Positions 1,108 through 57,256 of a stretch of 64,000 nt of DNA are shown piece by piece. How positions within the stretch are numbered: the first letter of the stretch is position 1; every line of letters starts with the position of its first letter. The notes under the pieces are model-generated. The model saw nothing but the letters and a program-made list of their open reading frames with translations. It searched no databases and was not told where the DNA came from. Source of the stretch: Eumeta japonica (Eukaryota > Arthropoda > Insecta > Lepidoptera > Psychidae); assembly GCA_005406025.1 (NCBI GenBank), contig BGZK01000998.1:166872-230871 (forward strand), given 5' to 3'. A program made the translations under genes and the position numbers.

Positions 1108-2354
1108 CTCTATTTCGGCTTATGGCTGCCTGATAGACTAGCTAAACCGTTGGAAGTGCACTTTCAGACATAGTTCTTTCAACAGTAAAATGACCCGAAG
1201 CCTTCCATATTGGCTGTGTGTCAGACGTTTTCTATAATGCTAATTAAAAGTGCCTATGAAATTTTTATTTCAACAAATTTGATATCTGTGTACGCCGGTA
1301 GGTCACACTCTAAATTTTTAGAATTGGCTACTTAGAAACTGTAAAACAATAATACATATTTAAGTTTTATTGTTTTACAGTTTTTACGTTTCGGAAAGAA
1401 CGCCTGCTTTTTTTACGTAGTTGTATAATGAGCGTTCACCAAAAACTTTGGTCATTGAAGGGCGGGTCTCTGAATTCCCATTTTTGTTAGATAACAATAT
1501 ATAACAAGACGTAAGAATTAATATCGTTTGTTACTAATTTTAATTAATAATTTAATAAATTAAAAACTTTGTGATATTTTCTAATCGAAACGACATCCAA
1601 AGATTATTATAGCCTCATAATCCGTTTGGGTTAAATATGAAACAGCTTTATTGCATTTTTTAATCTATTATTAACTATATATTTAAATCTATTATTAACA
1701 TAAGGGAAGATAAAAATCATATATTTTGAACATTTTGGATTTTGGTGGTTGGTGTTCGCTCAAGAAATATGACCTTTATGTACGCGGTATTTCCAACCAA
1801 GCGGCCGGTAGCAACATGAACTATTTTAATTTGTTTACTTGTCAGTTACGTTCTATCAACGTATGACACCTCGTTCTGATTACACCAAATCCCTTTCCTT
1901 TTTGGTACTCTCAGAATCCTAGTCTCTTTTTCTAGACACACCTCCTCAATCTCTCTATTTTTGTATCGGGATTAAATAACATTTCATTGATTGAAATGCA
2001 CAAATAGAAATAACGTTCGCACAATCCCACGCTGAGGCCGGATGCTTCACGTGCGAAATATACCACCATCTTAAAATCATTCTGATTTATTTATGGTCTT
2101 TTCTCTTGTTATATCTTGATTTTAAGCAAAATTTAGAGCTAATGTAGGGCGTAATTTGTTGTTTGTGATGAAAACAACTGCAACCATTAAGTGTAACTGA
2201 GGTTTTCTAAACATCGACACTGTAACAAAGCGTCATCATAAATCCTTTTGTATCGACCTCTATTAGGGTTCCTGTTGTTCTGCAAGTACGTTCTGTAAAT
2301 TTTGTGAAAAATGTAATGTAAGACATTCCGTGCAGTAAATACAAGTAAGATACA
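1108..2354. other. AT-rich spacer
   Basis: Apart from the hairpin at 1336-1383, no gene or recognised repeat is visible. The only long open frame (minus strand, 2207-2404) runs into the first decayed satellite unit and is not coding. Confidence 0.5.
1336..1383. repeat. Hairpin, 17-bp arms
   Basis: The arm 'aaactgtaaaacaataa' at 1336-1352 pairs with 1367-1383 across a 14-nt AT-rich loop. It may be a terminal inverted repeat remnant of a small MITE; nothing else supports that. Confidence 0.6.
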
Positions 2355-5300
2355 GTTTCATATTTAAAATGAGCGTCACCCTCACTGCACACTAGCAGTA
2401 ACATATGGTTTTATCTTGAAAGTGCTCGTCGCCTTCGCTCTAAATTAGAGATGACATAGAGTTTCATTTTTAAAGTTCAGGTCACCCTCGCTCTAAAGTA
2501 ACAATAACATAGTTTCTTCTTTAAAGGGCACGTGACCGTCGCTCTAAAGTAGCGTTAACATAGAGTTTCCTATTTAAAGTGCAGATCGCCCTCGCTCGAA
2601 ATTAGCAATAGCATAGATCTTTAAAGTGCACATCGCCCTCGCTTTAAAGTAACAATAACATAGTTTCATCTTTAAAGGGCACGTGACCGTCGCTCTAAAG
2701 TAGCGATAACATAGAGTTTCATCTTTAAAGTGCAGGTCGCTCTCGCTCCAAATTAGCAATAGCGTAGATCTTTAAAGTGCACATCGTCCTCGCTTTAAAG
2801 TAACAATAACATAGTTTCTTCTTTAAAGGGCACGTGACCGTCGCTCTAAAGTAGCGTTAACATAGAGTTTCCTATTCAAAGTGCAGATCGCCCTCGCTCG
2901 AAATTAGCAATAACATAGATCTTCAAAGTGCACATCGCCCTCGCTTTAAAGTAACAATAACATAGTTTCTTCTTTAAAGGGCACGTGACCGTCGCTTTAA
3001 AGTAGCGATAACATGGAGTTTCCTATTCAAAGTGCAGGTCGCCCTCGCTCGAAATTAGCAATAGCATAGATCTTTAAAGTGCACATCGCCCTCGTTTTAA
3101 AGTAACAATAACATAGTTTCATCTTTAAAGGGCACCTGACCGTCGCTCTAAAGTAGCGATAACATAGAGTTTCATCTTTAAAGTGCAGGTCGCTCTCGCT
3201 CCAAATTAGCAATAGCGTAGATCTTTAAAGTGCACATCGCCCTCGCTTTAAAGTAACAATAACATAGTTTCATCTTTAAAGGGCACGTGACCGTCGCTCT
3301 AAAGTAGCGATAACATAGAGTTTCATCTTAAAGTGCAGGTCGCTCTCGCCCAAATTAGCAATAGCGTAGATCTTTAAAGTGCACATCACCCTCGCTTTAA
3401 AGTAACAATAACATAGTTTCTTCTTTAAAGGGCACGTGACCGTCGCTCTAAAGTAGCGTTAACATGGAGTTTCCTATTCAAAGTGCAGATCGCCCTCGCT
3501 CGAAATTAGCAATAGCATAGATCTTTAAAGTGCACATCGCCCTCGCTTTAAAGTAACAATAACATTGTTTCTTCTTTAAAGGGCACGTGACCGTCGCTCT
3601 AAAGTAGCGTTAACATGGAGTTTCTATTCAAAGTGCAGATCGCCCTCGCTCGAAATTAGCAATAGCATAGATCTTTAAAGTGCACATCGCCCTCGCTTTA
3701 AAGTAACAATAACATAGTTTCTTCTTTAAAGGGCACGTGACCGTCGCTTTAAAGTACCGTTAACATGGAGTTTCCTATTCAAAGTGCAGATCGCCCTCGC
3801 TCGAAATTAGCAATAGCATAGATCTTTAAAGTGCACATCGCCCTCGTTTTAAAGTAACAATAACATTGTTTCTTCTTTAAAGGGCACGTGACCGTCGCTC
3901 TAAAGTAGCGTTAACATGGAGTTTCCTATTCAAAGTGCAGATCGCCCTCGCTCGAAATTAGCAATAGCATAGATCTTTAAAGTGCACATCGCCCTCGCTT
4001 TAAAGTAACAATAATAGTTTCTTCTTTAAAGGGCACGTGACCGTCATCTAAAGTAGCGTTAACATGGAGTTTCCTATTCAAAGTGCAGATCGCCCTCGCT
4101 CGAAATTAGCAATAGCATAGATCTTTAAAGTGCACATCGCCCTCGTTTTAAAGTAACAATAACATAGTTTCATCTTTAAAGGGCACGTGACCGTCGCTCT
4201 AAAGTAGCGATAACATAGAGTTTCATCTTTAAAGTGCAGGTCGCTCTCGCTCCAAATTAGCAATAGCGTAGATCTTTAAAGTGCACATCGCCCTCGCTTT
4301 AAAGTAACAATATAGTTTCTTTAAAGGGCACGTGACCGTCGCTCTAAAGTAGCGTTAACATGGAGTTTCCTATTCAAAGTGCAGATCGCCCTCTCCAAAT
4401 TAGCAATAGCATAGATCTTTAAGGGTGCACATCGCCTCCTTTAAAGTAACAATAACATAGTTTCATCTTTAAAGGGCACGTGACCGTCGCTCTAAAGTAG
4501 CGTTAACATGGAGTTTCCTATTCAGTGCAGGTCGCCCTCGCTCGAAATTAGTAATAGCATAGATCTTTAAAGTGCACATCGCCCTCGTTTTAAAGTAACA
4601 ATAACATAGTTTCATCTTTAAAGGGCACGTGACCGTCGCTCTAAAGTAGCGATAACATAGAGTTTCATCTTTAGTGCAGGTCGCTCTCGCCAAATTAGTA
4701 ATAGCGTAGATCTTTAAAGTGCACATCGCCCTCGCTTTAAAGTAACAATAACATAGTTTCTTCTTTAAAGGGCACGTGACCGTCGCTCTAAAGTAGCGAT
4801 AACATAGAGTTTCATCTTTAGTGCAGGTCGCTCTCGCTCCAAATTAGCAATAGCATAGATCTTTAAAGTGCACATCGCCTCGTTTTAAAGTAACAATAAC
4901 ATAGTTTCATCTTTAAAGGGCACGTGACCGTCGCTCTAAAGTAGCGATAACATAGAGTTTCATCTTTAAGTGCAGGTCGCTCTCGCTCCAAATTAGCAAT
5001 AGCGTAGATCTTTAAAGTGCACATCGCCCGCTTTAAAGTAACAATAACATAGTTTCTTCTTTAAAGGCGTGACCGTCGCTCTAAAGTAGCGTTAACATGG
5101 AGTTTCCTATTCAGTGCAGATCGCTCTCGCTCCAAATTAGCAATAGCATAGATCTTTAAAGTGCATCGCCCTCGTTTTAAAGTAACAATAACATAGTTTC
5201 ATCTTTAAAGGGCACGTGACCGTCGCTCTAAAGTAGCGTTAACATGGAGTTTCCTATTCAAAGTGCAGATCGCCCTCGCTCGAAATTAGCAATAGCATAG

Positions 5301-8300
5301 ATCTTTAAAGTGCACATCGCCCTCGCTTTAAAGTAACAATAACATAGTTTCTTCTTTAAAGGGCGTGACCGTCGCTCTAAAGTAGCGTTAACATGGAGTT
5401 CCTATTCAAAGTGCAGATCGCCCTCGCTCGAAATTAGCAATAGCATAGATCTTTAAAGTGCACATCGCCCCGCTTTAAAGTAACAATAACATAGTTTCAT
5501 CTTTAAAGGGCACGTGACCGTCGCTCTAAAGTAGCGTTAACATGGAGTTTCCTATTCAGTGCAGGTCGCCCTCGCTCGAAATTAGCAATAGCATAGATCT
5601 TTAAAGTGCACATCGCCCTCGCTTTAAAGTAACAATAACATAGTTTCATCTTTAAAGGGCACGTGACCGTCGCTCTAAAGTAGCGATAACATAGAGTTTC
5701 ATCTTTAAAGTGCAGGTCGCTCTCGCTCAAATTAGTAATAGCGTAGATCTTTAAGGCACATCGCCCTCGCTTTAAAGTAACAATAACATGTTTCTTCTTT
5801 AAAGGGCACGTGACCGTCGCTCTAAAGTAGCGATAACATAGAGTTTCATCTTTAGGTGCAGGTCGCTCTCGCTCCAAATTAGCAATAGCGTAGATCTTTA
5901 AAGTGCACATCGCCCTCGCTTTAAAGTAACAATAACATAGTTTCATCTTTAAAGGGGCACGTGACCGTCGCTCTAAAGTAGCGATAACATAGAGTTTCAT
6001 CTTTAAAGTGCAGGTCGCTCTCGCTCCAAATTAGCAATAGCGTAGATCTTTAAAGTGCACATCGCCCTCGCTTTAAAGTAACAATAACATAGTTTCATCT
6101 TTAAGGGCACCTGACCGTCGCTCTAAAGTAGCGATAACATAGAGTTCATCTTAAAGTGCAGGTCGCCTCGCTCCAAATTAGCAATAGCGTAGATCTTTAA
6201 GTGCACATCGCCCTCGCTTTAAAGTAACAATAACATAGTTTCTTCTTTAAAGGGCACACCGTCGCTCTAAAGTAGCGTTAACATGGAGTTTCATCTTTAA
6301 AGTGCAGGTCGCTCTCGCTCCAAATTAGCAATAGCGTAGATCTTTAAAGTGCACATCACCCTCGCTTTAAAGTAACAATAACATAGTTTCTTCTTTAAAG
6401 GGCACGTGACCGTCGCTCTAAAGTAGCGTTAACATGGAGTTTCCTATTCAAAGTGCAGATCGCCCTCGCTCGAAATTAGCAATAGCATAGATCTTTAAAG
6501 TGCACATCGCCCTCGCTTTAAAGTAACAATAACATTGTTTCTTCTTTAAAGGGCACGTGACCGTCGCTCTAAAGTAGCGTTAACATGGAGTTTCCTATTC
6601 AAAGTGCAGATCGCCCTCGCTCGAAATTAGCAATAGCATAGATCTTTAAAGTGCACATCGCCCTCGCTTTAAAGTAACAATAACATAGTTTCTTCTTTAA
6701 AGGGCACGTGACCGTCGCTTTAAAGTACCGTTAACATGGAGTTTCCTATTCAAAGTGCAGATCGCCCTCGCTCGAAATTAGCAATAGCATAGATCTTTAA
6801 AGTGCACATCGCCCTCGTTTTAAAGTAACAATAACATTGTTTCTTCTTTAAAGGGCACGTGACCGTCGCTCTAAAGTAGCGTTAACATGGAGTTTCCTAT
6901 TCAAAGTGCAGATCGCCCTCGCTCGAAATTAGCAATAGCATAGATCTTTAAAGTGCACATCGCCCTCGCTTTAAAGTAACAATAACATAGTTTCTTCTTT
7001 AAAGGGCACGTGACCGTCGCTCTAAAGTAGCGTTAACATGGAGTTTCCTATTCAAAGTGCAGATCGCCTCGCTCGAAATTAGCAATAGCATAGATCTTTA
7101 AAGTGCACATCGCCCTCGTTTTAAGTAACAATAACATAGTTTCATCTTTAAAGGGCACGTGACCGTCGCTCTAAAGTAGCGATAACATAGTTTCATCTTT
7201 AAAGTGCAGGTCGCTCTCGCTCCAAATTAGCAATAGCGTAGATCTTTAAAGTGCACATCGCCCTCGCTTTAAAGTAACAATAACATAGTTTCTTCTTTAA
7301 AGGGCACGTGACCGTCGCTCTAAAGTAGCGTTAACATGGAGTTTCCTATTCAAAGTGCAGATCGCCCTCGCTCGAAATTAGCAATAGCATAGATCTTTAA
7401 AGTGCACATCGCCCTCGCTTTAAAGTAACAATAACATAGTTTCATCTTTAAAGGGCACGTGACCGTCGCTCTAAAGTAGCGTTAACATGGAGTTTCCTAT
7501 TCAAAGTGCAGGTCGCCCTCGCTCGAAATTAGCAATAGCATAGATCTTTAAAGTGCACATCGCCCTCGTTTTAAAGTAACAATAACATAGTTTCATCTTT
7601 AAAGGGCACGTGACCGTCGCTCTAAAGTAGCGATAACATAGAGTTTCATCTTTAGTGCAGGTCGCTCTCGCTCAAATTAGTAATAGCGTAGATCTTTAAA
7701 GTGCACATCGCCCTCGCTTTAAAGTAACAATAACATAGTTTCTTCTTTAAAGGGCGTGACCGTCGCTCTAAAGTAGCGATAACATAGAGTTTCATCTTTA
7801 AAGTGCAGGTCGCTCTCGCTCCAAATTAGCAATAGCATAGATCTTTAAAGTGCACATCGCCCTCGTTTTAAAGTAACAATAACATAGTTTCATCTTTAAA
7901 GGGCACGTGACCGTCGCTCTAAAGTAGCGATAACATAGAGTTTCATCTTTAAAGTGCAGGTCGCTCTCGCTCAAATTAGCAATAGCGTAGATCTTTAAAG
8001 TGCACATCGCCCTCGCTTTAAAGTAACAATAACATAGTTTCTTCTTTAAAGGGCACGTGACCGTCGCTCTAAAGTAGCGTTAACATGGAGTTTCCTATTC
8101 AAGTGCAGATCGCCCTCGCTCGAAATTAGCAATAGCATAGATCTTTAAAGTGCACATCGCCCTCGCTTTAAAGTAACAATAACATAGTTTCATCTTTAAA
8201 GGGCACGTGACCGTCGCTCTAAAGTAGCGTTAACATGGAGTTTCCTATTCAAAGTGCAGGTCGCCCTCGCTCGAAATTAGCAATAGCATAGATCTTTAAA

Positions 8301-11300
8301 GTGCACATCGCCCTCGCTTTAAAGTAACAATAACATAGTTTCATCTTTAAAGGGCACGTGACCGTCGCTCTAAAGTAGCGATAACATAGAGTTTCATCTT
8401 TAAAGTGCAGGTCGCTCTCGCTCCAAATTAGTAATAGCGTAGATCTTTAAAGTGCACATCGCCCTCGCTTTAAAGTAACAATAACATAGTTTCATCTTTA
8501 AAGGGCACGTGACCGTCGCTCTAAAGTAGCGTTAACATGGAGTTTCCTATTCAAAGTGCAGATCGCCCTCGCTCGAAATTAGCAATAGCATAGATCTTTA
8601 AAGTGCACATCGCCCTCGTTTTAAAGTAACAATAACATAGTTTCATCTTTAAAGGGCACGTGACCGTCGCTCTAAAGTAGCGATAACATAGAGTTTCATC
8701 TTTAAAGTGCAGGTCGCTCTCGCTCCAAATTAGCAATAGCGTAGATCTTTAAAGTGCACATCGCCCTCGCTTTAAAGTAACAATAACATAGTTTCTTCTT
8801 TAAAGGGCACGTGACCGTCGCTCTAAAGTAGCGTTAACATGGAGTTTCCTATTCAAAGTGCAGATCGCCCTCGCTCGAAATTAGCAATAGCATAGATCTT
8901 TAAAGTGCACATCGCCCTCGTTTTAAAGTAACAATAACATAGTTTCATCTTTAAAGGGCACGTGACCGTCGCTCTAAAGTAGCGATAACATAGAGTTTCA
9001 TCTTTAAAGTGCAGGTCGCTCTCGCTCAAATTAGCAATAGCGTAGATCTTTAAAGTGCACATCGCCCTCGCTTTAAAGTAACAATAACATAGTTTCTTCT
9101 TTAAAGGGCACGTGACCGTCGCTCTAAAGTAGCGTTAACATGGAGTTTCCTATTCAAAGTGCAGATCGCCCTCGCTCGAAATTAGCAATAGCATAGATCT
9201 TTAAAGTGCACATCGCCCTCGCTTTAAAGTAACAATAACATAGTTTCATCTTTAAAGGGCACGTGACCGTCGCTCTAAAGTAGCGTTAACATGGAGTTTC
9301 CTATTCAAAGTGCAGGTCGCCCTCGCTCGAAATTAGCAATAGCATAGATCTTTAAAGTGCACATCGCCCTCGTTTTAAAGTAACAATAACATAGTTTCAT
9401 CTTTAAAGGGCACGTGACCGTCGCTCTAAAGTAGCGATAACATAGAGTTTCATCTTTAAAGTGCAGGTCGCTCTCGCTCCAAATTAGTAATAGCGTAGAT
9501 CTTTAAAGTGCACATCGCCCTCGCTTTAAAGTAACAATAACATAGTTTCTTCTTTAAAGGGCACGTGACCGTCGCTCTAAAGTAGCGATAACATAGAGTT
9601 TCATCTTTAAAGTGCAGGTCGCTCTCGCTCCAAATTAGCAATAGCATAGATCTTTAAAGTGCACATCGCCCTCGTTTTAAAGTAACAATAACATAGTTTC
9701 ATCTTTAAAGGGCACGTGACCGTCGCTCTAAAGTAGCGATAACATAGAGTTTCATCTTTAAAGTGCAGGTCGCTCTCGCTCCAAATTAGCAATAGCGTAG
9801 ATCTTTAAAGTGCACATCGCCCTCGCTTTAAAGTAACAATAACATAGTTTCTTCTTTAAAGGGCACGTGACCGTCGCTCTAAAGTAGCGTTAACATGGAG
9901 TTTCCTATTCAAAGTGCAGATCGCCCTCGCTCGAAATTAGCAATAGCATAGATCTTTAAAGTGCACATCGCCCTCGCTTTAAAGTAACAATAACATAGTT
10001 TCATCTTTAAAGGGCACGTGACCGTCGCTCTAAAGTAGCGTTAACATGGAGTTTCCTATTCAAAGTGCAGGTCGCCCTCGCTCGAAATTAGCAATAGCAT
10101 AGATCTTTAAAGTGCACATCGCCCTCGCTTTAAAGTAACAATAACATAGTTTCATCTTTAAAGGGCACGTGACCGTCGCTCTAAAGTAGCGATAACATAG
10201 AGTTTCATCTTTAAAGTGCAGGTCGCTCTCGCTCCAAATTAGCAATAGCGTAGATCTTTAAAGTGCACATCGCCCTCGCTTTAAAGTAACAATAACATAG
10301 TTTCTTCTTTAAAGGGCACGTGACCGTCGCTCTAAAGTAGCGTTAACATGGAGTTTCCTATTCAAAGTGCAGATCGCCCTCGCTCGAAATTAGCAATAGC
10401 ATAGATCTTTAAAGTGCACATCGCCCTCGCTTTAAAGTAACAATAACATAGTTTCATCTTTAAAGGGCACGTGACCGTCGCTCTAAAGTAGCGATAACAT
10501 AGAGTTTCATCTTTAAAGTGCAGGTCGCTCTCGCTCCAAATTAGCAATAGCGTAGATCTTTAAAGTGCACATCGCCCTCGCTTTAAAGTAACAATAACAT
10601 AGTTTCTTCTTTAAAGGGCACGTGACCGTCGCTCTAAAGTAGCGTTAACATGGAGTTTCCTATTCAAAGTGCAGATCGCCCTCGCTCGAAATTAGCAATA
10701 GCATAGATCTTTAAAGTGCACATCGCCCTCGCTTTAAAGTAACAATAACATAGTTTCATCTTTAAAGGGCACGTGACCGTCGCTCTAAAGTAGCGTTAAC
10801 ATGGAGTTTCCTATTCAAAGTGCAGGTCGCCCTCGCTCGAAATTAGCAATAGCATAGATCTTTAAAGTGCACATCGCCCTCGTTTTAAAGTAACAATAAC
10901 ATAGTTTCATCTTTAAAGGGCACGTGACCGTCGCTCTAAAGTAGCGATAACATAGAGTTTCATCTTTAAAGTGCAGGTCGCTCTCGCTCCAAATTAGCAA
11001 TAGCGTAGATCTTTAAAGTGCACATCGCCCTCGCTTTAAAGTAACAATAACATAGTTTCTTCTTTAAAGGGCACGTGACCGTCGCTCTAAAGTAGCGTTA
11101 ACATGGAGTTTCCTATTCAAAGTGCAGATCGCCCTCGCTCGAAATTAGCAATAGCATAGATCTTTAAAGTGCACATCGCCCTCGCTTTAAAGTAACAATA
11201 ACATAGTTTCATCTTTAAAGGGCACGTGACCGTCGCTCTAAAGTAGCGTTAACATGGAGTTTCCTATTCAAAGTGCAGGTCGCCCTCGCTCGAAATTAGC

Positions 11301-14300
11301 AATAGCATAGATCTTTAAAGTGCACATCGCCCTCGTTTTAAAGTAACAATAACATAGTTTCATCTTTAAAGGGCACGTGACCGTCGCTCTAAAGTAGCGA
11401 TAACATAGAGTTTCATCTTTAAAGTGCAGGTCGCTCTCGCTCCAAATTAGCAATAGCGTAGATCTTTAAAGTGCACATCGCCCTCGCTTTAAAGTAACAA
11501 TAACATAGTTTCTTCTTTAAAGGGCACGTGACCGTCGCTCTAAAGTAGCGATAACATAGAGTTTCATCTTTAAAGTGCAGGTCGCTCTCGCTCCAAATTA
11601 GCAATAGCATAGATCTTTAAAGTGCACATCGCCCTCGTTTTAAAGTAACAATAACATAGTTTCATCTTTAAAGGGCACGTGACCGTCGCTCTAAAGTAGC
11701 GATAACATAGAGTTTCATCTTTAAAGTGCAGGTCGCTCTCGCTCCAAATTAGCAATAGCGTAGATCTTTAAAGTGCACATCGCCCTCGCTTTAAAGTAAC
11801 AATAACATAGTTTCTTCTTTAAAGGGCACGTGACCGTCGCTCTAAAGTAGCGTTAACATGGAGTTTCCTATTCAAAGTGCAGATCGCCCTCGCTCGAAAT
11901 TAGCAATAGCATAGATCTTTAAAGTGCACATCGCCCTCGCTTTAAAGTAACAATAACATAGTTTCATCTTTAAAGGGCACGTGACCGTCGCTCTAAAGTA
12001 GCGTTAACATGGAGTTTCCTATTCAAAGTGCAGGTCGCCCTCGCTCGAAATTAGCAATAGCATAGATCTTTAAAGTGCACATCGCCCTCGTTTTAAAGTA
12101 ACAATAACATAGTTTCATCTTTAAAGGGCACGTGACCGTCGCTCTAAAGTAGCGTTAACATGGAGTTTCCTATTCAAAGTGCAGATCGCCCTCGCTCGAA
12201 ATTAGCAATAGCATAGATCTTTAAAGTGCACATCGCCCTCGCTTTAAAGTAACAATAACATAGTTTCATCTTTAAAGGGCACGTGACCGTCGCTCTAAAG
12301 TAGCGTTAACATGGAGTTTCCTATTCAAAGTGCAGGTCGCCCTCGCTCGAAATTAGCAATAGCATAGATCTTTAAAGTGCACATCGCCCTCGTTTTAAAG
12401 TAACAATAACATAGTTTCATCTTTAAAGGGCACGTGACCGTCGCTCTAAAGTAGCGATAACATAGAGTTTCATCTTTAAAGTGCAGGTCGCTCTCGCTCC
12501 AAATTAGTAATAGCGTAGATCTTTAAAGTGCACATCGCCCTCGCTTTAAAGTAACAATAACATAGTTTCTTCTTTAAAGGGCACGTGACCGTCGCTCTAA
12601 AGTAGCGATAACATAGAGTTTCATCTTTAAAGTGCAGGTCGCTCTCGCTCCAAATTAGCAATAGCGTAGATCTTTAAAGTGCACATCGCCCTCGCTTTAA
12701 AGTAACAATAACATAGTTTCATCTTTAAAGGGCACGTGACCGTCGCTCTAAAGTAGCGATAACATAGAGTTTCATCTTTAAAGTGCAGGTCGCTCTCGCT
12801 CCAAATTAGCAATAGCGTAGATCTTTAAAGTGCACATCGCCCTCGCTTTAAAGTAACAATAACATAGTTTCATCTTTAAAGGGCACCTGACCGTCGCTCT
12901 AAAGTAGCGATAACATAGAGTTTCATCTTTAAAGTGCAGGTCGCTCTCGCTCCAAATTAGCAATAGCGTAGATCTTTAAAGTGCACATCGCCCTCGCTTT
13001 AAAGTAACAATAACATAGTTTCTTCTTTAAAGGGCACTTGACCGTCGCTCTAAAGTAGCGTTAACATGGAGTTTCCTATTCAAAGTGCAGGTCGCCCTCG
13101 CTCGAAATTAGCAATAGCATAGATCTTTAAAGTGCACATCGCCCTCGTTTTAAAGTAACAATAACATAGTTTCATCTTTAAAGGGCACGTGACCGTCGCT
13201 CTAAAGTAGCGATAACATAGAGTTTCGTCTTTAAAGGGCAGGTCGCTCGCTCCAAATTAGCAATAGCGTAGATCTTTAAAGTGCACATCGCCCTCGCTTT
13301 AAAGTAACAATAACATAGTTTCTTCTTTAAAGGGCACGTGACCGTCGCTCTAAAGTAGCGTTAACATGGAGTTTCCTATTCAAAGTGCAGATCGCCCTCG
13401 CTCGAAATTAGCAATAGCATAGATCTTTAAAGTGCACATCGCCCTCGTTTTAAAGTAACAATAACATAGTTTCATCTTTAAAGGGCACGTGACCGTCGCT
13501 CTAAAGTAGCGATAACATAGAGTTTCATCTTTAAAGTGCAGGTCGCTCTCGCTCAAATTAGCAATAGCGTAGATCTTTAAAGTGCACATCGCCCTCGCTT
13601 TAAAGTAACAATAACATAGTTTCTTCTTTAAAGGGCACGTGACCGTCGCTCTAAAGTAGCGATAACATAGAGTTTCATCTTTAAGTGCAGGTCGCTCTCG
13701 CTCCAAATTAGCAATAGCGTAGATCTTTAAAGTGCACATCGCCCTCGCTTTAAAGTAACAATAACATAGTTTCATCTTTAAAGGGCACGTGACCGTCGCT
13801 CTAAAGTAGCGATAACATAGAGTTTCATCTTTAAAGTGCAGGTCGCTCTCGCTCCAAATTAGCAATAGCGTAGATCTTTAAAGTGCACATCGCCCTCGCT
13901 TTAAAGTAACAATAACATAGTTTCATCTTTAAAGGGCACGTGACCGTCGCTCTAAAGTAGCGATAACATAGAGTTTCATCTTTAGTGCAGGTCGCTCTCG
14001 CTCCAAATTAGCAATAGCGTAGATCTTTAAAGTGCACATCGCCCTCGCTTTAAAGTAACAATAACATAGTTTCTTCTTTAAAGGGCACGTGACCGTCGCT
14101 CTAAAGTAGCGTTAACATGGAGTTTCCTATTCAAAGTGCAGATCGCCCTCGCTCGAAATTAGCAATAGCATAGATCTTTAAAGTGCACATCGCCCTCGCT
14201 TTAAAGTAACAATAACATAGTTTCTTCTTTAAAGGGCACGTGACCGTCGCTCTAAAGTAGCGTTAACATGGAGTTTCCTATTCAAAGTGCAGATCGCCCT

Positions 14301-15955
14301 CGCTCGAAATTAGCAATAGCATAGATCTTTAAAGTGCACATCGCCCTCGTTTTAAAGTAACAATAACATAGTTTCATCTTTAAAGGGCACGTGACCGTCG
14401 CTCTAAAGTAGCGATAACATAGAGTTTCATCTTTAAAGTGCAGGTCGCTCTCGCTCAAATTAGCAATAGCGTAGATCTTTAAAGTGCACATCGCCCTCGC
14501 TTTAAAGTAACAATAACATAGTTTCTTCTTTAAAGGGCACGTGACCGTCGCTCTAAAGTAGCGATAACATAGAGTTTCATCTTTAAAGTGCAGGTCGCTC
14601 TCGCTCCAAATTAGCAATAGCGTAGATCTTTAAAGTGCACATCGCCCTCGCTTTAAAGTAACAATAACATAGTTTCATCTTTAAAGGGCACGTGACCGTC
14701 GCTCTAAAGTAGCGATAACATAGAGTTTCATCTTTAAAGTGCAGGTCGCTCTCGCTCCAAATTAGCAATAGCGTAGATCTTTAAAGTGCACATCGCCCTC
14801 GCTTTAAAGTAACAATAACATAGTTTCATCTTTAAAGGGCACCTGACCGTCGCTCTAAAGTAGCGATAACATAGAGTTTCATCTTTAAAGTGCAGGTCGC
14901 TCTCGCTCCAAATTAGCAATAGCGTAGATCTTTAAAGTGCACATCGCCCTCGCTTTAAAGTAACAATAACATAGTTTCTTCTTTAAAGGGCACGTGACCG
15001 TCGCTCTAAAGTAGCGTTAACATGGAGTTTCCTATTCAAAGTGCAGATCGCCCTCGCTCGAAATTAGCAATAGCATAGATCTTTAAAGTGCACATCGCCC
15101 TCGCTTTAAAGTAACAATAAGATAGTTTCTTCTTTAAAGGGCACGTGACCGTCGCTCTAAAGTAGCGTTAACATGGAGTTTCCTATTCAAAGTGCAGGTC
15201 GCCCTCGCTCGAAATTAGCAATAGCATAGATCTTTAAAGTGCACATCGCCCTCGTTTTAAAGTAACAATAACATAGTTTCATCTTTAAAGGGCACGTGAC
15301 CGTCGCTCTAAAGTAGCGATAACATAGAGTTTCATCTTTAAAGTGCAGGTCGCTCTCGCTCCAAATTAGCAATAGCGTAGATCTTTAAAGTGCACATCGC
15401 CCTCGCTTTAAAGTAACAATAACATAGTTTCTTCTTTAAAGGGCACGTGACCGTCGCTCTAAAGTAGCGATAACATAGAGTTTCATCTTTAAGTGCAGGT
15501 CGCTCTCGCTCAAATTAGCAATAGCGTAGATCTTTAAAGTGCACATCGCCCTCGCTTTAAAGTAACAATAACATAGTTTCATCTTTAAAGGGCACGTGAC
15601 CGTCGCTCTAAAGTAGCGATAACATAGAGTTTCATCTTTAAAGTGCAGGTCGCTCTCGCTCCAAATTAGCAATAGCGTAGATCTTTAAAGTGCACATCGC
15701 CCTCGCTTTAAAGTAACAATAACATAGTTTCATCTTTAAATGGCACGTGACCGTCGCTCTAAAGTATCGATAACATAGAGTTTCATCTTTAAAGTGCAGG
15801 TCGCTCGCGCTCTAAATTAGCAATAGCGTAGATCTTTAAAGTGCACATCGCCCTCGCTTTAAAGTAACAATAACATAGTTTCATCTTTAAAGGGCACGTC
15901 GCCTTCGCTCTACATTAACGATACCATAGAGTTTCATCTTTGAAATGCGCGTCAC
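2355..15955 (+). repeat. 151-bp tandem satellite array, about 90 monomers
   Basis: A monomer of 151 bp repeats without interruption for about 13.6 kb. Each monomer is three diverged copies of one ancestral unit of about 50 bp. Sub-repeat A is about 47 bp (gtgcaggtcgctctcgctcc... gatcttt), B about 51 bp (gtgcacatcgccctcgcttt...) and C about 53 bp (gggcacgtgaccgtcgctct...). All three have the pattern (c)tttaaag + g/tgcac + cgctc + taacatag. Monomers fall into two main forms. One has 'ttcatctttaaagtgcagg' plus 'gcgtag'; the other has 'ttcctattcaaagtgcag' plus 'gcatag' and 'gttaacatgg'. They alternate in higher-order blocks. The centre is homogeneous and both edges are decayed, as expected for unequal exchange. 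Minus-strand open frames of 61-165 aa recur because of the repetition and shift frame with each monomer (151 is not a multiple of 3), so they are not genes. Confidence 0.95.
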
Positions 15956-16721
15956 CATGCAATTTTCAAAATGACCCCTTAATACAAATTCAAATGGCAT
16001 TTTGACGAAATAAAATTAATTCTATGGCTCTTGAATTTCATTTTCAAATGTCGTATTTACTTTTTAAATTTTGTTTATATAAGCGGCCGGTTCCGGACTT
16101 TCACGTCGGACAAACGGATATTAAGGAAAATCTTAAGCAAAAAAAATAAATATTAACGGAAATATCGTCAACTCAGACGCACAACACTCCAGGAAATAGC
16201 CGAGAACATCCAAAGCGAAAACGACAGCGGCTGTACGGCGACAGTAACGCGAAGTTTCATCTGTAAAGTGCGCGTCGCCCTCGCTCAGCCCGGGCTCATT
16301 ATACGTGTGCGCCGCGCCGTGACTTTCGCGGCTCCTCGTCGCTGCACTGTTTGTTGAAAGGCTGTAGCTAGGCTGTAGAAAAGGCTTCGTTATATTACAC
16401 ACGGGGTGTGGAGTCAAAAAAGATTCTTTCGTTGTATTTCTGATGGCGCAAAGCTTTGCCAGCTGGCGTGAAATATCGATTTCAAAAGAACTTCATTTGA
16501 ATGTTTGCATTTAATTTGCATAAATTAAACATACAGCATCTTTTGAAGTTTTGTTTACCGTATAACGGTTTTCGATAAAAAAAATATTGCATTATCGAAG
16601 TGAAACTTCATTGGCCACGGCAAAAGATCAATTTTATTGTTACTTTTACATTAATGTTACGCTCAAAATACGCTAGTATTTCATTCGTAAAGTAAAAGAA
16701 CTAATTAGGTTGTCGTAGGAC
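15956..16721. other. Spacer flanking the satellite
   Basis: AT-rich sequence with one CpG-rich block at about 16,085-16,345. A 94-aa minus-strand open frame here has no recognisable domain. An isolated satellite sub-unit lies within it and is listed separately. Confidence 0.5.
16254..16288 (+). repeat. Isolated satellite sub-unit outside the array
   Basis: A single half-unit, 'gtttcatctgtaaagtg' followed by 'cgcgtcgccctcgct', lies about 300 bp beyond the array end. Its 'gcgcgtcgcc' core resembles the decayed edge units more than the homogenised core monomers. Confidence 0.7.
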
Positions 16722-17128
16722 AACCGGTAGGAACGACGTTCCTTTAGCTCTACATTAGTTATTATTAGATAAGAAGTACAAAGAAGGAATTATAATAAAA
16801 TTGCATTTAATATATTTTTCATTTTTCTATATAATTTGATGAAAATAAGAAAAATATTGTTAATTACCATTATAAAAATATAAAGAAATATAAACTTAAT
16901 CAGTATATTCAACAGATATATGAATATATTGCTGACACGTATAACGCGCGTCTACACTGCAGTAATACAGCTATAGAGAGATATAAGCTATAAGGTAGTA
17001 GGTAAACGAAGCTAGAGGAGCAGTTCCTCCACGGCGCCAAGTACGCGTTTACCCTTCCTCTATCGTTCACGTCTCTGACTTAAAAGTGTCGGTCGGACGC
17101 TTTTTCCCGCATAGCTCCCATCCGCCAA
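16722..17128 (-). repeat. Dispersed repeat of about 410 bp, copy on minus strand
   Basis: The reverse complement of this stretch aligns along its length with 41,660-42,118. Shared blocks, in order: 'gggagcta', 'aaaaagcgtccgaccgacac', 'ctgctcctctag', 'cagcaatatattc', 'atactgattaa', 'gcaattttattat', and a terminal 'aaaggaac' followed by 'gtcgttcc'. No reading frame is kept. It is probably a SINE, a MITE or a solo LTR; the class is not determined. Confidence 0.75.
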
Positions 17129-20100
17129 ACATACGATGAGGAATTTTGTTCCAATATAAGAAAGTATATGATATACTATTCTCAAAAGAAATCATTTTTT
17201 ACGAGTTTCGTAGGATTCTAAATTAAAATATATCTGCAGTTTTAAAAGTAAAATGTCAGTCCTTTAATATTTCTTATCGGAAACTTATAGACATTAGGCT
17301 ATACACCTATACTAATGTTAACAATACTACTTGTAATGATAATATGTAAATGGTTTATCTTATCCTACATTGTATTAATAAGTCTTGAAGGTCACTTTTG
17401 TAAGAAAATCAAAGCCACAAAACAAAGAACAACAACCTTTCAATACACTTACCTTACACTGAATACGTATCACTAGCGCGTAGCATCAGCAATATCAAAG
17501 CCTACTCCCCATTATCTGTTAGGGTTATCGACTAAGGACATTCGACTCAAAATTGATTTTATTCAAAGTTATTCAGGTTTACATTTAGAGTATGTGACTT
17601 ACAGAAAGATATTTTAAATAGAAAATTATTGTTAAATCCATTTTGTATCAAGAATTATGAACATCTGAAACCGAACAAGTGATGTGTGCAAGGATCGTAC
17701 CTTGGAGAACTATGGTGTCCATCTTTCTGGGAATAAGCGTGAATCAATAAATAAGATAAAATCGGAACTAAATATTGGTGTTTTTCGTGACATATCTGTC
17801 TGTTTTAGCAAAGATCTCAGTGTTTAATATGAATGGAGCCGTCAAATGTGTTCGTTTTGACGGACGCCCGAACAGAAACAAAGCTCTCACGCTTCATGAC
17901 GGCGGCTGGAGTTTTGTTATCTCCAGAGCGAAACGAAATTCGCTACAAACCCCCGCACCGGCCGGGCAGACGTGCGGCACACGTCCCTCACACACCTCTC
18001 ACATGCCCCGAATGCGATTCTTTGGCAGCCGGTTTTTCTATGCATCATCGTCTCGACTGATACCTTAGCACTAGTACGAGTAGAAAATGGATGCAGGAGG
18101 GGAATGATTAATTTATTTTTTTTAATCGCCTAAATTAGTTGTATTTAGTAGGTTTAAGATACGAGATGTCGCTCTTTTCTCCAATCTCGAGCCTTTTGTT
18201 GACGTTGAAAACCTTTTGCGAACTGCTGACGATCAATAAGAATACAATTTAAAAAAAAAAAACAATGGCACTCCAAGAATGCCGACATACATGAAAACTT
18301 GAACAATTACGTATGTATTTATTGAATCGTCAGGAAATATGTTATTGTGCAGGAAATACTTTTAAATTAAGTATTTTTTTATTCATTGTTATTAACTACT
18401 ACTACAAAAATTATATTACAATTTTCATTTAATGCACTATTTTACATGAAAAAGAACGCATATTGTTTTACATACGAAAATTGTAATCTATTGCTTAAAA
18501 CGTAAATTCCGTTCAAGCAGTTCCGACATGAATATATATATATGTATGTTGTACGTATATACACAATATATGTTTATATTATATATAGCTATATTATCAA
18601 TGTATTTCAACTCAAACTCAACTCTCGTATAAACGGGGCCAATACAGGTAGACACTTTTATACAGAGGTGTCGGTTATGTAACGGTAACAGTGTCGCGAG
18701 TTCAATGGTTTTCCCATTTCAGAAATGCCCAACGCGTCAAAAGAAGTTATCACTTCAAAAAAAATCATGAAATCAAAAAATCATTACGATTAGCCACGCC
18801 ATATCCTCTTTGATTCTTTTTTATTAAAATCAGATCAGAAAATAACTACCCAACAAGCAAAATAAACATCAACAACTTTATATAACGTAGTTTTAAGTAG
18901 TTTATAGTCCTATATCATCAATAGTTAAGTAGACGAACTTTAACTACGTTTAATGAATTTATTTTTTCATTGTCATTACAATGAATAGTTGTAACATTGT
19001 ATAGTACATTTCTATACGTAGACCTATAGATAGACAAAATAAATAATAATATTCGTTATACTTGTGCAATTTGAATGAAAAATAAAATACCATAAAAAAA
19101 TTAATAGTAGATTAACATAAAAAGTGAAATTTATAAATCAAATAAAATATATATTTTACAACTCAGTTGGTGAGTAACTAAAATACGTTTGAAATAAACT
19201 TAGTATACGTTATTGATTTATCGCAATGTAAATAAAAGGTATAAATATGAGTCAATAGGTATATGTATGAAATAAAATAATTTTAAATTATTTGTATAAA
19301 CATTATATAATTTAATATAAAATATGATACTCAAATTGTATCGTCATTTTATTTATCTTTAACTAATTATCTCACACAATGGATCTTTATACTCATTAAT
19401 GCTCATTTGCGTGAAATGCCCTGTTAGATTTTTTTTCCATTACTTTGAATCAACATCATAATTAATTCATATTATTGAATCAATGAATTCATTAAATTCA
19501 TCTCAACCAATAATGGAACAGCTGACGAAAAATTTGAGACATGTTTTGATGATGAATATTTTTTACCTGGTCAAATGGCACTACGTTTCGCAAATAAGGG
19601 CAACTCCATGTAATAGTAAGAATATTTTATGAATATAAACATCTTCTTACATTAAAAAAAACTGTTTTCTTAATGTTGTGGATCATTCTCACATTTTATT
19701 TTAATTTCAAGTATAGAATTTTGAGCAGACGTTTACCTTAATTTTGGTTCTGACCGCTCCTTTTCTTGCCAGTATACCATAATTGATACGAGAATGAACA
19801 GAACGTGATAAATTTACAAAATGAAATTTATGTCAACCACTAAACGAACTTCTGAAAAGTTACATATTTTTATATGACGTATTATTAATTTTACACATAT
19901 ATATATATATTACGAAAGTTATAACTATGTAATAAATTTCAGAATTCATAGTTAAAAAACTAGTGTTTAATAAAATTATAATCTTATGGTTCATACTCAT
20001 AACTCCTCGTTAATGGGAAAGCTAATGTATTTAGTTTTTGATTCATTTATCGTCGGTTAATGACATTCAAGCGACTATATTATAATTTTTAGATTGTACT

Positions 20101-20312: not shown

Positions 20313-20649
<337 letters not shown>

Positions 20650-41480: not shown

Positions 41481-41659
41481 TATTAAGCTTTAAAGTGCTA
41501 ATTTATGATTGAATAAAGGCCGCATGTGGGGCTGGACGTTTTTCTTCCTGGTATTTACTTCCATTATCTTTATGCATTGTTGTTAAGAAGTGTATACCCC
41601 TACTTTTAAAATAAAGTAATTTTGTCATTATTATTTTATGATTGAAACGAAGATCCTTA
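41481..41659. other. Spacer
   Basis: Short AT-rich stretch between two dispersed repeats. Nothing seen. Confidence 0.4.
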
Positions 41660-42118
41660 TCGCGCGTTCACGGGTGGGAGCTACACGGTAAAAAGTGTCC
41701 GACCGACACTTTAGAGACGGAGAAACGAAAAGAGGGAGAGAGTAAACCTGTACTTTGCACCGAGGAGCGACTGCTGCTCTAGATTAATTTACTGTTTTTT
41801 ACCTTATATCTGTATACAGGTAATTCTACAGTATAGACGTGCGGCGTGTATGTCAACTTTATACGTATATATGTGTATACACTAAAGGCACATATTTCTG
41901 TAGTGTACATGTGCAATGTACTTGACAGCAGTATATTCGTATTGAATGTACTGATTAATTTTGTAATTTGTTTATGTTTTTATAACAATTATTAAAAATC
42001 AATTTTTTATAATCATGACTTTATAAACAAAAAAATATATTGAGTACAATTTTATTACCATTCATTCGTTGTTTCCTATTTAATATTACATAATGTATAA
42101 TGAAAGGAACTTCGTTCC
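41660..42118 (+). repeat. Dispersed repeat of about 450 bp, copy on plus strand
   Basis: This is the partner of 16,722-17,128 in opposite orientation. Shared blocks include 'gggagcta', 'aaaaagtgtccgaccgacac', 'gctgctctag', 'cagcagtatattc', 'tgtactgattaa', 'acaattttattac' and terminal 'aaaggaac' + 'ttcgttcc'. Microsatellite-like TA/TG words in the middle differ in length between copies. Confidence 0.75.
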
Positions 42119-47529: not shown

Positions 47530-48420
47530 GATCACGCTCTCAACCATGATCCCGCTCGCTATACCGTTGTCGATCCCGATCTTAAACCTGATCCTGATCC
47601 CGATCACGATCTTTACCCCGATCCCGATCCGGATCCCAGACTTTGATCCCGATCCTAATCCCGATCCTGATCGATCCTGATCCCGAACCTAATCCGATCC
47701 TGATCCCGATCATTATCCCGATCCCGATCTTTACCCAATCCCGATCCGGATCCCAGACTGATCCCGATCCTTATCCTGATTCCGATCCCGCTCCCGATCC
47801 ACTCCCGATCCCGATCGATCTTTACCCGATCCCGTTCCGGATCCCAGACTTTGATCCCGATCCTTATCCGATCCGATCCCGATCTTTACCCCGATCCTGA
47901 TCCCGATCCCCATCCTTATCCTGATCCTTATCCTGATCCCAATCCCGATCCTGAACCTGAACCTGATCCTGATCTTGATCCTTATCCTGATCCCGATCCT
48001 GATCCCGATCCCGATCTCGATCCCGATCCCTTTCCCAATCCCGATCCTGCTCTTGATCCCAATCCCAATCCTGATCCCGATCCCGATCTTGATTATTTTC
48101 CTGATCCTGATCCTGATCTTGATCCTTATCCTGATCCCGATCCTGATACCGATCCTGATCCCGATCCTTATCCTGATCCTGATCCTTATCCTGATCCCGA
48201 TCCCAATCCCGATCCTGATCCTGCTCCTGAAGCCAATCCCGATCCTGATCCCGATCCCGATCTTGATTATTTTCCTGGTCCTGATTCTGATCTTGATCTT
48301 TATCCTTATCCCGATCCCAAACCCGATCTGATCCTGATCCCGGTCCTGATCCCGATCCCAAACCCGACCTGACCCTGATCCTGATCCCGATCCTCTCCCG
48401 GTCCCACTCTCGATCCCAAT
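47530..48420 (+). repeat. Hexanucleotide array (GATCCC / GATCCT)n
   Basis: About 890 bp of imperfect 6-bp units, mostly gatccc, gatcct, gatctt, aatccc and ttatcct. The core (47,870-48,380) keeps the 6-bp phase almost perfectly. Because 6 is a multiple of 3, all frames stay open: 173 aa of Asp-Pro on the plus strand, 165 aa of Asp/Gln/Arg on the minus strand, 118 aa of Ile-Pro in another frame. There is no start context, splice site or flanking gene to suggest translation. Confidence 0.95.
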
Positions 48421-53861: not shown

Positions 53862-54718
53862 TTAATTTAGTGTAAAGAGTGTCGAAATAGTGCTGATGTA
53901 GTCTGAAGTGTCATCCTCAAAATCTTCGAATTTCTTGGATGACTTTGATGTATGACGCCTTCCTTTTTTCATTTTGGTGACACTTTTTGGGTCAGTTTTA
54001 TGTGATTTTTTTACTTTATTGGATCCATGCATATCTCTTAATTCTTCAGCCTGCAAAATAATTAAATATGAAATTAGATCTCTTTATAATAACAAAAGTA
54101 GGTATACAGCTATTGTAATTATAAATTATAGCCAATAGAACAATTTCAATAAAATTTAATACGAACTATGCTTTCCAAAGCAATGACAAGCAATTATGAT
54201 TTCATTCAATAAGCATTATAACTTTGACATGTTTACACATCAATACAGATTTTTTCATAGCAAATATCTTTGTATCTTTGATATTTACAATCCAAAAATA
54301 TATTTTTTCGTTTTTATTTATAATTTTTTTTGCAAATGCTTTGTTGAAGCAAATCAGTACAAAAATATTGTTTCACCTTCATACAAAGCGTTCTGTGAGT
54401 ACTGGGTAAGTCCTTCAAGTGTTTATCCATTTCCTTGAACCACACTGGAGAGGGTTTATATATTTCACCAGAACGGGCTTTTTGTAACATTTTATAAGTT
54501 TCTTTCAAATATATTAAATTCAGCTCTTTTAATTTTTTCAAAATTTCTTTAATAGTTAAAGTTTTTGATGTGGCAGCTTCAAATTCTGCTATAACATCTG
54601 CATATGCCGCTTCCCGTATGAAATTCAAGGAATAAACTGGGTTTGCTGGGTCCCAGAGAACATCGCGTTTAAAATAGATTTTAACGAATTTTAACGTGAG
54701 AGCATTAGTCCACTTCAT
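53862..54718 (-). CDS. MADF-domain protein A (two exons)
   Basis: Predicted 176-aa protein from exon 1 (54,718-54,377, 114 codons) and exon 2 (54,050-53,862), with a 326-bp intron. The intron has a donor 'gaag|gtgaaa' and an acceptor 'ttttgcag|gctgaa', phase 0. The ATG has a good insect context ('ttcaaaATGaag'). Residues about 8-90 form a MADF domain (Adf-1/Myb-SANT-like) with spaced Trp/Leu landmarks: 'KWTNALTLKFVKIYFK', 'VLWDPANPVYS', 'TYKMLQKARSG' and 'PSPVWFKEMDK'. Exon 2 encodes a Lys-rich then Asp/Glu-rich tail. MADF proteins usually bind DNA or chromatin, so a nuclear role is inferred, not shown. It is paralogous to the gene at 61,940 and oriented head to head with it. The C-terminal end is uncertain because protein-like sequence continues in a different frame past the stop, so a frameshift, another exon or decay are possible. 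Confidence 0.8.
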
Positions 54719-55727
54719 TTTGAACCTTTATTAGGCGAGCAAAAAATAAGATGAAACAAATTTAAACAAAATTAAAGGACGCAGAATAAAATATTATGTA
54801 CCTTTACGCGCTTTATTTTGTTTAGTTAAATAAAAAATTCAAGATTAAATGAAAGCCGATTGTCTTTAGATTTTAAATGAAAGAGCACAGAAGCACAAAT
54901 TCATCACAGGAATCTAAAATTCGATATTAATTTCACAACAAACAGCGCCACAGACGTTCTTAACAAAGTAAATACCAGCCATATTGATATAGTATAGCTC
55001 AAAGAAGTATCGATTTTCCAAATCAATACTTAGTGTTCAGTTCGGTATTGAGCTTTTCTCTATCAACACATCTAAAAGATATATGTATAGAGACATTGAT
55101 TTGATTTTAAAATTTCAATAGTTAAAATTTGGAGCCAGTAAAATTTTCCCTTCTTCAAAAAAAAAATAAATACCTGCTTAGATAAGTAATACATTAAGTT
55201 GTTCGTTATTACAATTTCGTTGCAAAAAATTCATTCTAGTCATTATAGACTATTTTCTAAGTGACCGATAGTATTCACTGCATTAAATAAAAAATCAGTT
55301 ACAGCAGTGGAGAAAACCGTCAACAAAATTTTAAGCTGATTTGGAATTTCACCAAGAATTCAAACGAATTGAAAAAAGAGCTATGAATCCTTTTTCATAA
55401 CCTTTTAATACAAAATGTCATGGTGCACATTTCTTTATAATATAAATGATTTTACATATATATATAATTAGATTATTTAATTTTTCTATAATATTTACCA
55501 AATGCAAATAATTTAGTAAAAGTATATAAATCATTAGTATCACCATCTTAACGAAAATATGCATTAAAACCATTTTCTTAATAAGCACTATTTCTTACGT
55601 AAGTTTTTAACTTTCCCCTTTTCACAACTTTGGATAGTTAGTTGTTTTATTCCGATTTTCGAAAATCGAAATTTGAAATTTCAGAGTCTTAGGAATCTAT
55701 TTCAGTTTCTGACCATTTTCTGCGTAA
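54719..55727. other. Spacer upstream of MADF gene A
   Basis: AT-rich. It would contain the promoter of gene A; no TATA box or initiator can be fixed by eye. No gene. Confidence 0.4.
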
Positions 55728-55768: not shown

Positions 55769-57199
55769 TTTTTTTTTTGTAGAGGAGGAAATACATTTGC
55801 GTATTCAACAGGCTTAGATGTTTCGGAATGTTGGACTCAAGATATACCGACTAAAACCTCCCCTTCCTCCAGCCTCTAATCCCCGCGAAAACCGCCGTTA
55901 GGCATTACTTCGCGGGGGGAGGATCTAGTTGCCGCTCTTCCTTCTGGTAGCTAAGGTGTTATTCTTCCTTCCTTCTAGTTGCTGTCTCTTGCTCTTCTTC
56001 TTTCGATGGAACACAAGTCCGTAAGGACTTCTGTAGCAAACGTGCTAGTAGCGTTACAGGTTGCTTTTGTTGACAACATTGCTTCTACGAGAGTCTCTGG
56101 TTGGATTCTCTGGTTTAAGATTGTCTCCAATTCATCACGCTACAAGTTAAAACGGGGGCACACGAAAAACACGTGCTCCGCGTCTTCTGGTTTTCCTGGG
56201 CAGGACGGGCACTCCGGTGAATCATCGCGCTTGAAGCGGTGGAGATACGCTCGGAAGCAGCCATATCCTGACAGCATCTGTGTCAGATAATAGTTGACTT
56301 CACCATGGTTACGGTTCAGCCAAACGTCAATCTGGGGTATGAGACGATGCGTCCATCTACCCTTCTTTCCAGCATCCCACTGTAGCTGCCATTGGCATAT
56401 ACTATTCTGCCGTTCTTCCTTGTTGATGACCTCGTTCGTTGGTAAAGAGTCTGTCTTTTCTCAGCTAGAACTCTAAGGGGTAGAATTCCAGAAATGACAC
56501 ACAGTGCTTCCTTGGATATTGTGCGGAAGGCGCTGACTACTCTCAAAGCACTCAGTCGATAAACTGGTGCAGCTTTTCTCCACGCTTCTTGGATCCCTAG
56601 CGCGTCTGACCAAATGGATATTCTGTATGTGAGCACTGACGAGACCACTGATGACAACAGTAGTCTTTTGCTTTGCTTAGGTCCTACGACGTTAGGCATC
56701 AATCGTGCTAGGCTAGCTCTTACTCTATCTTAGGCAGTGCTCACGTGTTCGACTGACTATTTGAAGTTGAGCCGGGCATCAATCATCACTCCCAGATCTC
56801 GCATATATGGTTGTGAAGTGATTTCTTGCTCTCCGACTTGCAACTTAATAGTTTCTGCCTTCTTTCTACTGATGATGAACACTGCCTCGGTCTTGTGTTT
56901 AGCTAGTTGTAAGTTCACCGTTTTCATCCACTGGCTGATTCGTTCGAAAGCCTTGTTGAAGGCCAAATTTATTTCGTCGAGATGCTTCGCGACTCTTATT
57001 ACCGCTACATCATCAGCATATACCACGAGTTTGACTTTTTTTGGCAATGGTACTTTCAGTAGGCCATCATACATGATGTTCCATAACAAAGGACCAAGAA
57101 CCGAACCTTGAGGTACCCTACCAGTTATCTTGTATTCTTTTAGGTCTTTTTCTGTGTCATACTTCAATACCCTATTTGTAAAGTAGCTTGCCACCACCC
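55768..57199 (-). mobile_element. R1-clade LINE, 5'-truncated, broken ORF2
   Basis: Minus strand, 5' to 3': 'VVASYFTNRVLKYD', 'GRVPQGSVLGPLLWNIMYDG' and YADD at 57,020-57,009 ('VVYADDVAVI'). Then come 'NLQLAKHKTEAVFI' and 'RDLGVMIDARLNF', followed by two in-frame stops. The same frame goes on with 'LARLMPNVVGPKQSKRLLL' to 56,316. A +1 shift then gives 'VWLNRNHGEVNYYLTQMLSG' and a Cys/His cluster 'CPSCPGKPEDAEHVFFVCP'. This C-terminal zinc-knuckle arrangement is typical of R1-clade ORF2. The 5' two thirds are missing (no endonuclease, RT fingers absent). The element ends in an A-run (55,768-55,778 as T on plus). It is flanked on both sides by (CA)n. Plus-strand frames of 60-124 aa here are shadows. 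Confidence 0.9.
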
Positions 57200-57256
57200 T
57201 GTGTGTGTGTATGTGTGTGTGGGAGTGTGTGTGTGTGTGTGTGGGAGGATGTGTGT
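57200..57256. repeat. (GT)n microsatellite at the LINE 5' junction
   Basis: Interrupted (GT)n ('gtgtgtgtgtatgtgtgtgt', 'gggagtgtgtgtgtg'). On the minus strand the (CA)n ends exactly where LINE-coding sequence begins. Confidence 0.95.

What the first reader, a model, noticed from the sequence alone, without database searches (positions are those of the whole stretch)
2355..15955. 151-bp satellite is itself a fused trimer of a unit of about 50 bp
Each monomer splits into A (about 47 bp), B (about 51 bp) and C (about 53 bp), all sharing the same skeleton (tttaaag, g/tgcac, cgctc, a/ttag, aacatag). A short ancestral repeat was fused into a trimer and then amplified as one 151-bp unit. The family matches nothing I recognise and may be undescribed.
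Basis: seen in the sequence. Interest (0 to 1): 0.75.

Follow-up and report, generated by a model that had tools for sequence, protein, structure and literature searches.

The report
Bagworm moth satellite from shorter repeat
This is a 13.6-kb tandem repeat, very probably from a bagworm moth, whose 151-base unit is three diverged copies of an older repeat of about 53 bases, with probable leftovers of that older repeat at both edges; it is a clear example of a well-known way satellites grow.

Summary
The window carries about 90 head-to-tail copies of a 151-bp unit (2469-15948). The unit is a fused trimer of A = 51, B = 53 and C = 47 bp, 79-84% identical where aligned: 7.5-10.3 s.d. above dinucleotide shuffles, and 0 of 1000 other 151-bp segments of the window are as self-similar. 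The left edge holds full-length units spaced exactly 53 bp, the right edge holds a hybrid and a cut unit, and a part-unit lies apart at 16253-16286. These look like remnants of the repeat from which the trimer arose, though only one alignment column separates them from A, B and C. Inside, two subtypes differ at seven fully linked sites and multi-monomer blocks are duplicated, as unequal exchange would give. All 192 residues of the predicted Eumeta protein EVAR_57980_1 are found in the window; its last 89 are satellite, so that gene model is probably an artefact. No function is shown. The searches made found no description in print; dispersal in the genome could not be tested. Verdict: real, a new family of a known kind, lowish interest.

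The parts
2469..15948 (+). 151-bp satellite array, about 90 copies, each monomer = A (51) + B (53) + C (47)
   Evidence: TRF; consensus and subunit alignment; 272 subunit hits on the + strand in 2300-16300, of whose 271 spacings 220 are 51, 53 or 47
2363..2415 (+). edge unit L1, 53 bp, unfused type, diverged (37 of 51 to A, 37 of 53 to B, 34 of 47 to C)
   Evidence: nhmmer 15.8 bits
2416..2468 (+). edge unit L2, 53 bp, unfused type; stands where a C unit would be but lacks C's 6-bp deletion
   Evidence: 53-bp spacing at 2337/2390/2443
2469..2519 (+). junction unit L3: first half without A's private bases (columns 13, 25), second half A-like (column 33 and the 2-bp gap)
2337..2362 (+). tentative tail of a still older unit (L0)
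   Evidence: inside the 69-nt direct repeat spaced 53 bp; alone it is not significant, E = 13
15886..15938 (+). right junction unit R1: B-like start, then not B at columns 15, 16 and 19, with one A-private and one C-private base further on
   Evidence: 45.2 bits; state table
15939..15960 (+). truncated edge unit R2 with GCGCGTC
16253..16286 (+). separate part-unit spanning a unit junction (last 9 bases of one unit plus 25 bases of the next), about 290 bp beyond the array
   Evidence: 27 nt 85% identical to 15930-15956; E = 0.00013 with a profile of A, B, C, L1, L2 and R1 on the array-masked window
16157..16366 (-). exon-like piece of EVAR_57980_1 (70 of 70 aa identical), overlapping the isolated part-unit

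Best explanation
A local 53-bp tandem repeat lay here first. Three neighbouring copies diverged, A and C losing 2 and 6 bp, and became one exchange unit. Unequal exchange between register-shifted copies then amplified that 151-bp trimer to about 90 copies and homogenised it in multi-monomer blocks. Units at the edges escaped homogenisation and keep the older 53-bp form. Shown: the trimeric unit, the 53-bp spaced left-edge units, the hybrid junction units, two linked subtypes and long block duplications (as assembled). Inferred: unequal crossing-over (rather than rolling-circle amplification or replication slippage) as the process, and the order of events. No cellular function is shown; neutral turnover is the default.
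For: Trimer similarity far above controls. Left edge spaced 53 and 53; L2 lacks C's deletion. At column 11 A, B and C share A while L1, L2, R2 and the isolated copy have G, T, G, G. L1 is further from A, B and C (70-73%) than these are from each other (79-84%). L3 and R1 are hybrids at the array boundaries. Subtype sites 94, 102, 104, 107, 122 and 130 agree with site 87 in every one of 71-74 scorable monomers, while sites 49, 117 and 145 agree in 55, 63 and 70 of 74, as recombination among subtypes would leave. Blocks of 1165 bp (lag 13 monomers), 862 bp (lag 5) and 754 bp (lag 20) repeat with at most 2 mismatches. Monomer identity at lag 20 exceeds the family-wise 95% limit over 30 lags (0.979 vs 0.971; 1000 permutations).
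Against: Only one column (11) separates A, B and C from the unfused edge units, these do not agree among themselves there, and I chose which units to count as unfused. L2 is no further from A, B and C (77-81%) than B is from C (79%) by more than two points. Edge units could be decayed trimer copies whose deletions never spread. The assembly is from about 6.56 Gb of nanopore reads (N50 15 kb) for a ~724 Mb genome (PMC6488591, passages), so copy number, block duplications and small indels may partly be assembly artefacts. Of 30 lags only lag 20 passes the family-wise limit.
Confidence: 0.75

Rival explanations
1. The edge units are ordinary trimer monomers that decayed at the array ends, and the trimer itself came from elsewhere (for example by insertion of an extrachromosomal circle).
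For: Array ends are expected to diverge under unequal exchange; R1 starts clearly B-like, and L2 is about as close to B (43 of 53) as B is to C (37 of 47).
Against: The left-edge repeat is spaced exactly 53 bp and L2 lacks the 6-bp C deletion in the C place; R2 and the isolated copy share GCGCGTC, absent from the A, B and C consensus.
Confidence: 0.15
2. The array is part of, or was spread by, a mobile element (as in Helentron-type carriers of satellite-like arrays).
For: Such carriers are reported in oyster (PMC7492417, seen in the search listing only). The ORF 16157-16357 (+), which overlaps the isolated part-unit, has a weak resemblance to a Tc1/Tc3-type transposase helix-turn-helix domain (PF01498, E = 0.071, 13.8 bits against a cut-off of 31.5), and a dispersed repeat copy lies at 16730-17159.
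Against: No similarity between left and right flanks at E 1e-4; the Pfam match is below its cut-off, was one of 10 ORFs scanned, and found no solved relative. The one protein found with the array and right-flank ORFs is from this same locus, but those searches are limited by length and shared words.
Confidence: 0.1
3. The array has a function, for example as regulatory or heterochromatin-forming DNA; unit B carries the E-box core CACGTG (80 copies in the array).
For: 80 CACGTG in the 13.6-kb array against 6 in the other ~50 kb of the window.
Against: The motif is not specially conserved: its 6-base window ranks 83 of 146 from the most conserved, so its number follows from copy number.
Confidence: 0.05

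Closest known systems
Mouse major satellite (234 bp, four 58-60 bp sub-repeats; PMC8122249, passage)
   Same: A longer monomer built of diverged copies of a ~50-60 bp repeat and amplified as one unit.
   Different: Trimer, not tetramer; a 13.6-kb array in a moth contig; no sequence relation was tested; [quoted passage not shown]
Alpha-satellite higher-order arrays with monomeric edges (edge monomers mentioned in PMC8122249, passage; layout otherwise recalled)
   Same: Homogenised multi-unit repeat in the centre, older-looking single units at the edges.
   Different: Small scale, ~53-bp base unit, no sign of a centromere role; Lepidoptera are holocentric.
Small satellite clusters in lepidopteran euchromatin (Crambidae, PMC8042265, passages)
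   Same: Small satellite array in a moth, in DNA that also holds retroelement and MADF-domain ORFs.
   Different: That paper's main text has 0 occurrences of 'subrepeat', 'subunit' and 'higher order'; the sequences were not compared, as none is held.

Membership tests
Satellite DNA (tandem array of a repeat over 100 bp) | Head-to-tail array of many near-identical units | tested here: met
   89.8 copies, 94% matches; mean pairwise identity 96% among 74 monomers
Satellite DNA (tandem array of a repeat over 100 bp) | High abundance in the genome, many loci | not testable with these tools
   Own-genome search did not complete; only this locus was seen
Complex satellite made by merging shorter repeats | Monomer splits into diverged copies of one shorter unit | tested here: met
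Complex satellite made by merging shorter repeats | Shorter ancestral repeat exists outside the fused unit | tested here: inconclusive
   53-bp spaced left edge, R2 and isolated part-unit are there; that they are ancestral rather than decayed rests on L2's lack of the C deletion and one column
Regular higher-order repeat array | One fixed multi-monomer period through the array | tested here: not met
   Only local blocks; lags 5, 7, 12, 20 and 25 raised singly, only 20 family-wise
Mobile-element-borne array | Element ends or element proteins flanking the array | tested here: inconclusive
   No flank-to-flank similarity; 10 of 21 listed flank ORFs scanned in Pfam, 0 above a curated cut-off, one weak Tc3-type transposase match at 16157-16357; target-site duplications not tested
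Any previously named lepidopteran satellite | Sequence match to a named family | not tested
   No satellite library is held; a 15-base core string occurs in 0 of 5.39 million papers

The most novel reading that the evidence does not exclude
This locus preserves a satellite at its birthplace: the unfused 53-bp parent repeat, the boundary junctions and the amplified trimer all lie in one 14-kb stretch, so the steps from minisatellite to a 151-bp, nucleosome-sized satellite can be read in order. It may be the only locus of the family.
Probability: 0.4. Interest if true: 0.45.

Novelty: new member of a known kind. Interest (0 to 1): 0.32.

Why it matters
Satellites are usually caught after their origin has been erased. 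Here the probable parent repeat still flanks the product, which would give a polarised record of fusion, amplification and homogenisation in a moth, a group in which satellite DNA has been studied in detail in only about a dozen species (PMC10257491, passage). It also shows a predicted public protein that is partly satellite. The kind of event itself is textbook.

Tried and rejected
A further split of the unit into ~23 + ~30 bp halves: weak lag peaks at 23, 28 and 30, but half-to-half alignment is poor (shuffle p = 0.01, 0.12, 0.38 for A, B, C); not claimed.

A regular higher-order repeat: not found, only local blocks. A megablast self-search for blocks listed nothing; I replaced it by the ungapped diagonal count, which keeps the longest run per lag.

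Site 49 in A is linked neither fully to B of its own monomer (55 of 74) nor to B of the one before (21 of 68), so no better cutting phase was found.

A protein-coding role: minus-strand ORFs up to 175 aa run across frames because 151 is not a multiple of 3; the only homologue found is the gene model at this same locus, and a shorter query had no candidate. RNA: no Rfam match at gathering scores.

Relatives elsewhere: three scans of viral contigs gave one single match and an 18-base scan of prokaryote genomes four single matches (my own estimate of chance for 257 Gb is about 7). I took these as chance and did not look into L001-L005. Phages: none.

Function through the E-box in B: copy number explains it.

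Full report
What is there. One tandem array occupies 2469-15948, period 151, 89.8 copies. Cutting it at a fixed anchor gave 83 anchors and 82 intervals; 74 intervals of 130-160 bp were aligned and 8 others left out. These 74 monomers are on average 96% identical, and 116 of 151 columns are invariant.

Is the monomer a trimer? Yes. Autocorrelation shows secondary peaks at 51, 98, 53, 47, 100 and 104, the spacings expected of units of 51, 53 and 47 bp. A/B agree at 43 of 51, A/C at 39 of 47 and B/C at 37 of 47 aligned positions, with z of 10.3, 8.7 and 7.5 against dinucleotide shuffles. None of 1000 segments of equal length from elsewhere in the window comes near the internal score (33.5 against at most 21); the array and seven other tandem-repeat stretches were excluded from these, three short ones were not. 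A lacks 2 bp and C 6 bp near the unit's 3' end.

Edges. Beyond the trimer array the repeat goes on in another form. On the left, a 69-nt direct repeat recurs at 53-bp steps (2337, 2390, 2443; copies 65% and 71% identical to the first), and L1 and L2 are full 53-bp units; L2 stands where a C unit is due, yet has no C deletion. L3 combines a first half without A's private bases and a second half with A's column-33 base and gap. On the right, R1 begins like B, then departs from B at columns 15, 16 and 19 and carries one A-private and one C-private base; R2 is cut short. A part-unit at 16253-16286, about 290 bp further on, is 85% identical over 27 nt to the right edge, E = 0.00013 with a profile of A, B, C, L1, L2 and R1 on the array-masked window. 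No other place in the masked window scores better than E = 5 with that profile. At column 11 A, B and C carry A; L1, L2, R2 and the isolated copy carry G, T, G, G. L3 and R1 carry A there and were left out as hybrids. This is the only such column, L2 is about as close to A, B and C (77-81%) as B is to C (79%), and L1 is further off (70-73%). So the polarity is suggestive, not proven. A possible older tail at 2337-2362 is not significant alone (E = 13).

Inside the array. Two subtypes, here called Y and x, differ at seven sites that are fully linked: 94, 102, 104, 107, 122 and 130 agree with site 87 in all scorable monomers (71-74). Sites 145, 117 and 49 agree in 70, 63 and 55 of 74; the A site 49 also does not follow the B of the monomer before (21 of 68). 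Exchange has thus reshuffled the subtypes. Judged by the other units, Y keeps the older base at 49, 87, 94, 102, 104, 107 and probably 117, and x at 122 and 145, so neither subtype is simply the parent. Blocks up to 1165 bp recur with at most 2 mismatches, the five longest starting between 9.0 and 10.4 kb. Identity is raised at lags of 5, 7, 12, 20 and 25 monomers (permutation p at most 0.017 each, 30 lags tested), but only lag 20 passes the family-wise limit. There is no fixed higher-order period.

Whose DNA. All its 192 residues lie in the window: 33 at 18048-17950, 70 at 16366-16157 and the last 89 at three identical places in the array. The window is therefore very probably from the bagworm genome published as Eumeta variegata (PMC6488591; passages seen), on the contig of 230,871 bp that one search lists; that the EVAR tag belongs to that assembly is my inference. 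The protein's last part is satellite, so the model is probably a prediction artefact; the gene prediction used cDNA mapping, so transcription through the edge is not excluded. A search with the right-flank ORF found only the same protein.

Flanks. Left and right flank show no similarity to each other. Of 21 stop-to-stop ORFs listed near the array (12 of 50 aa or more on the left, 9 of 60 aa or more on the right) 10 were scanned against Pfam; none passed a curated cut-off, three gave weak matches. One of these, a Tc3-type transposase domain at E = 0.071, falls on 16157-16357, between the array edge and the isolated part-unit and over it. It is at chance level by itself and found no solved relative, but it would explain the interruption as a decayed transposon inserted in the array's edge; I leave it as a lead.

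How it most likely works. Unequal exchange among 53-bp repeats made a diverged trimer the unit of exchange; it spread to ~90 copies, and the edges escaped. The review PMC8122249 (passages) states that complex satellites grow by merging shorter motifs, gives the mouse major satellite (234 bp of four 58-60 bp units), and describes Smith's unequal-crossover model. No function needs to be assumed. The E-box core in B is numerous but not specially conserved.

Limits. The own-genome search did not complete, so genome-wide copy number, other loci and relatives are untested. The assembly rests on ~6.56 Gb of nanopore reads polished with short reads; small indels in runs of A (columns 108-109) and the exact copy number should be checked on reads. 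Literature searches by sequence string and by topic gave no description of this family in their listings, which show at most 20 papers each; of the papers I saw passages of PMC6488591, PMC8042265, PMC8122249 and PMC10257491 only.

Noticed in passing
window 8856-9122, 13383-13649, 14285-14551, 16157-16366, 17950-18048 (minus): Public protein EVAR_57980_1 is made of two flank pieces plus 89 residues of translated satellite (three identical places): probably a false gene model.
   Followed up: yes
window 16157-16357 (plus): ORF with a weak, below-cut-off resemblance to a Tc3-type transposase domain, in the interruption at the array's right edge.
   Followed up: partly
window 47572-48394: Long degenerate array of GATCCN-type hexamers, open in several frames on both strands (DP-, IP/IL-, RI- and DQ-rich translations), strong GC skew.
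   Followed up: no
window 16730-17159 and 41636-42118: Inverted dispersed repeat pair of ~430 bp, 71-73% identical, one copy just right of the array.
   Followed up: no
window 54314-54727 (minus) and 61928-62320 (plus): Two MADF-domain ORFs in opposite orientation, 66% identical DNA over 309 aligned bases: a diverged pair.
   Followed up: partly
window 56757-57344 (minus): Reverse-transcriptase fragment (Pfam RVT_1) of a retroelement.
   Followed up: partly
window 20317-20647: ATT trinucleotide run of about 110 copies.
   Followed up: no
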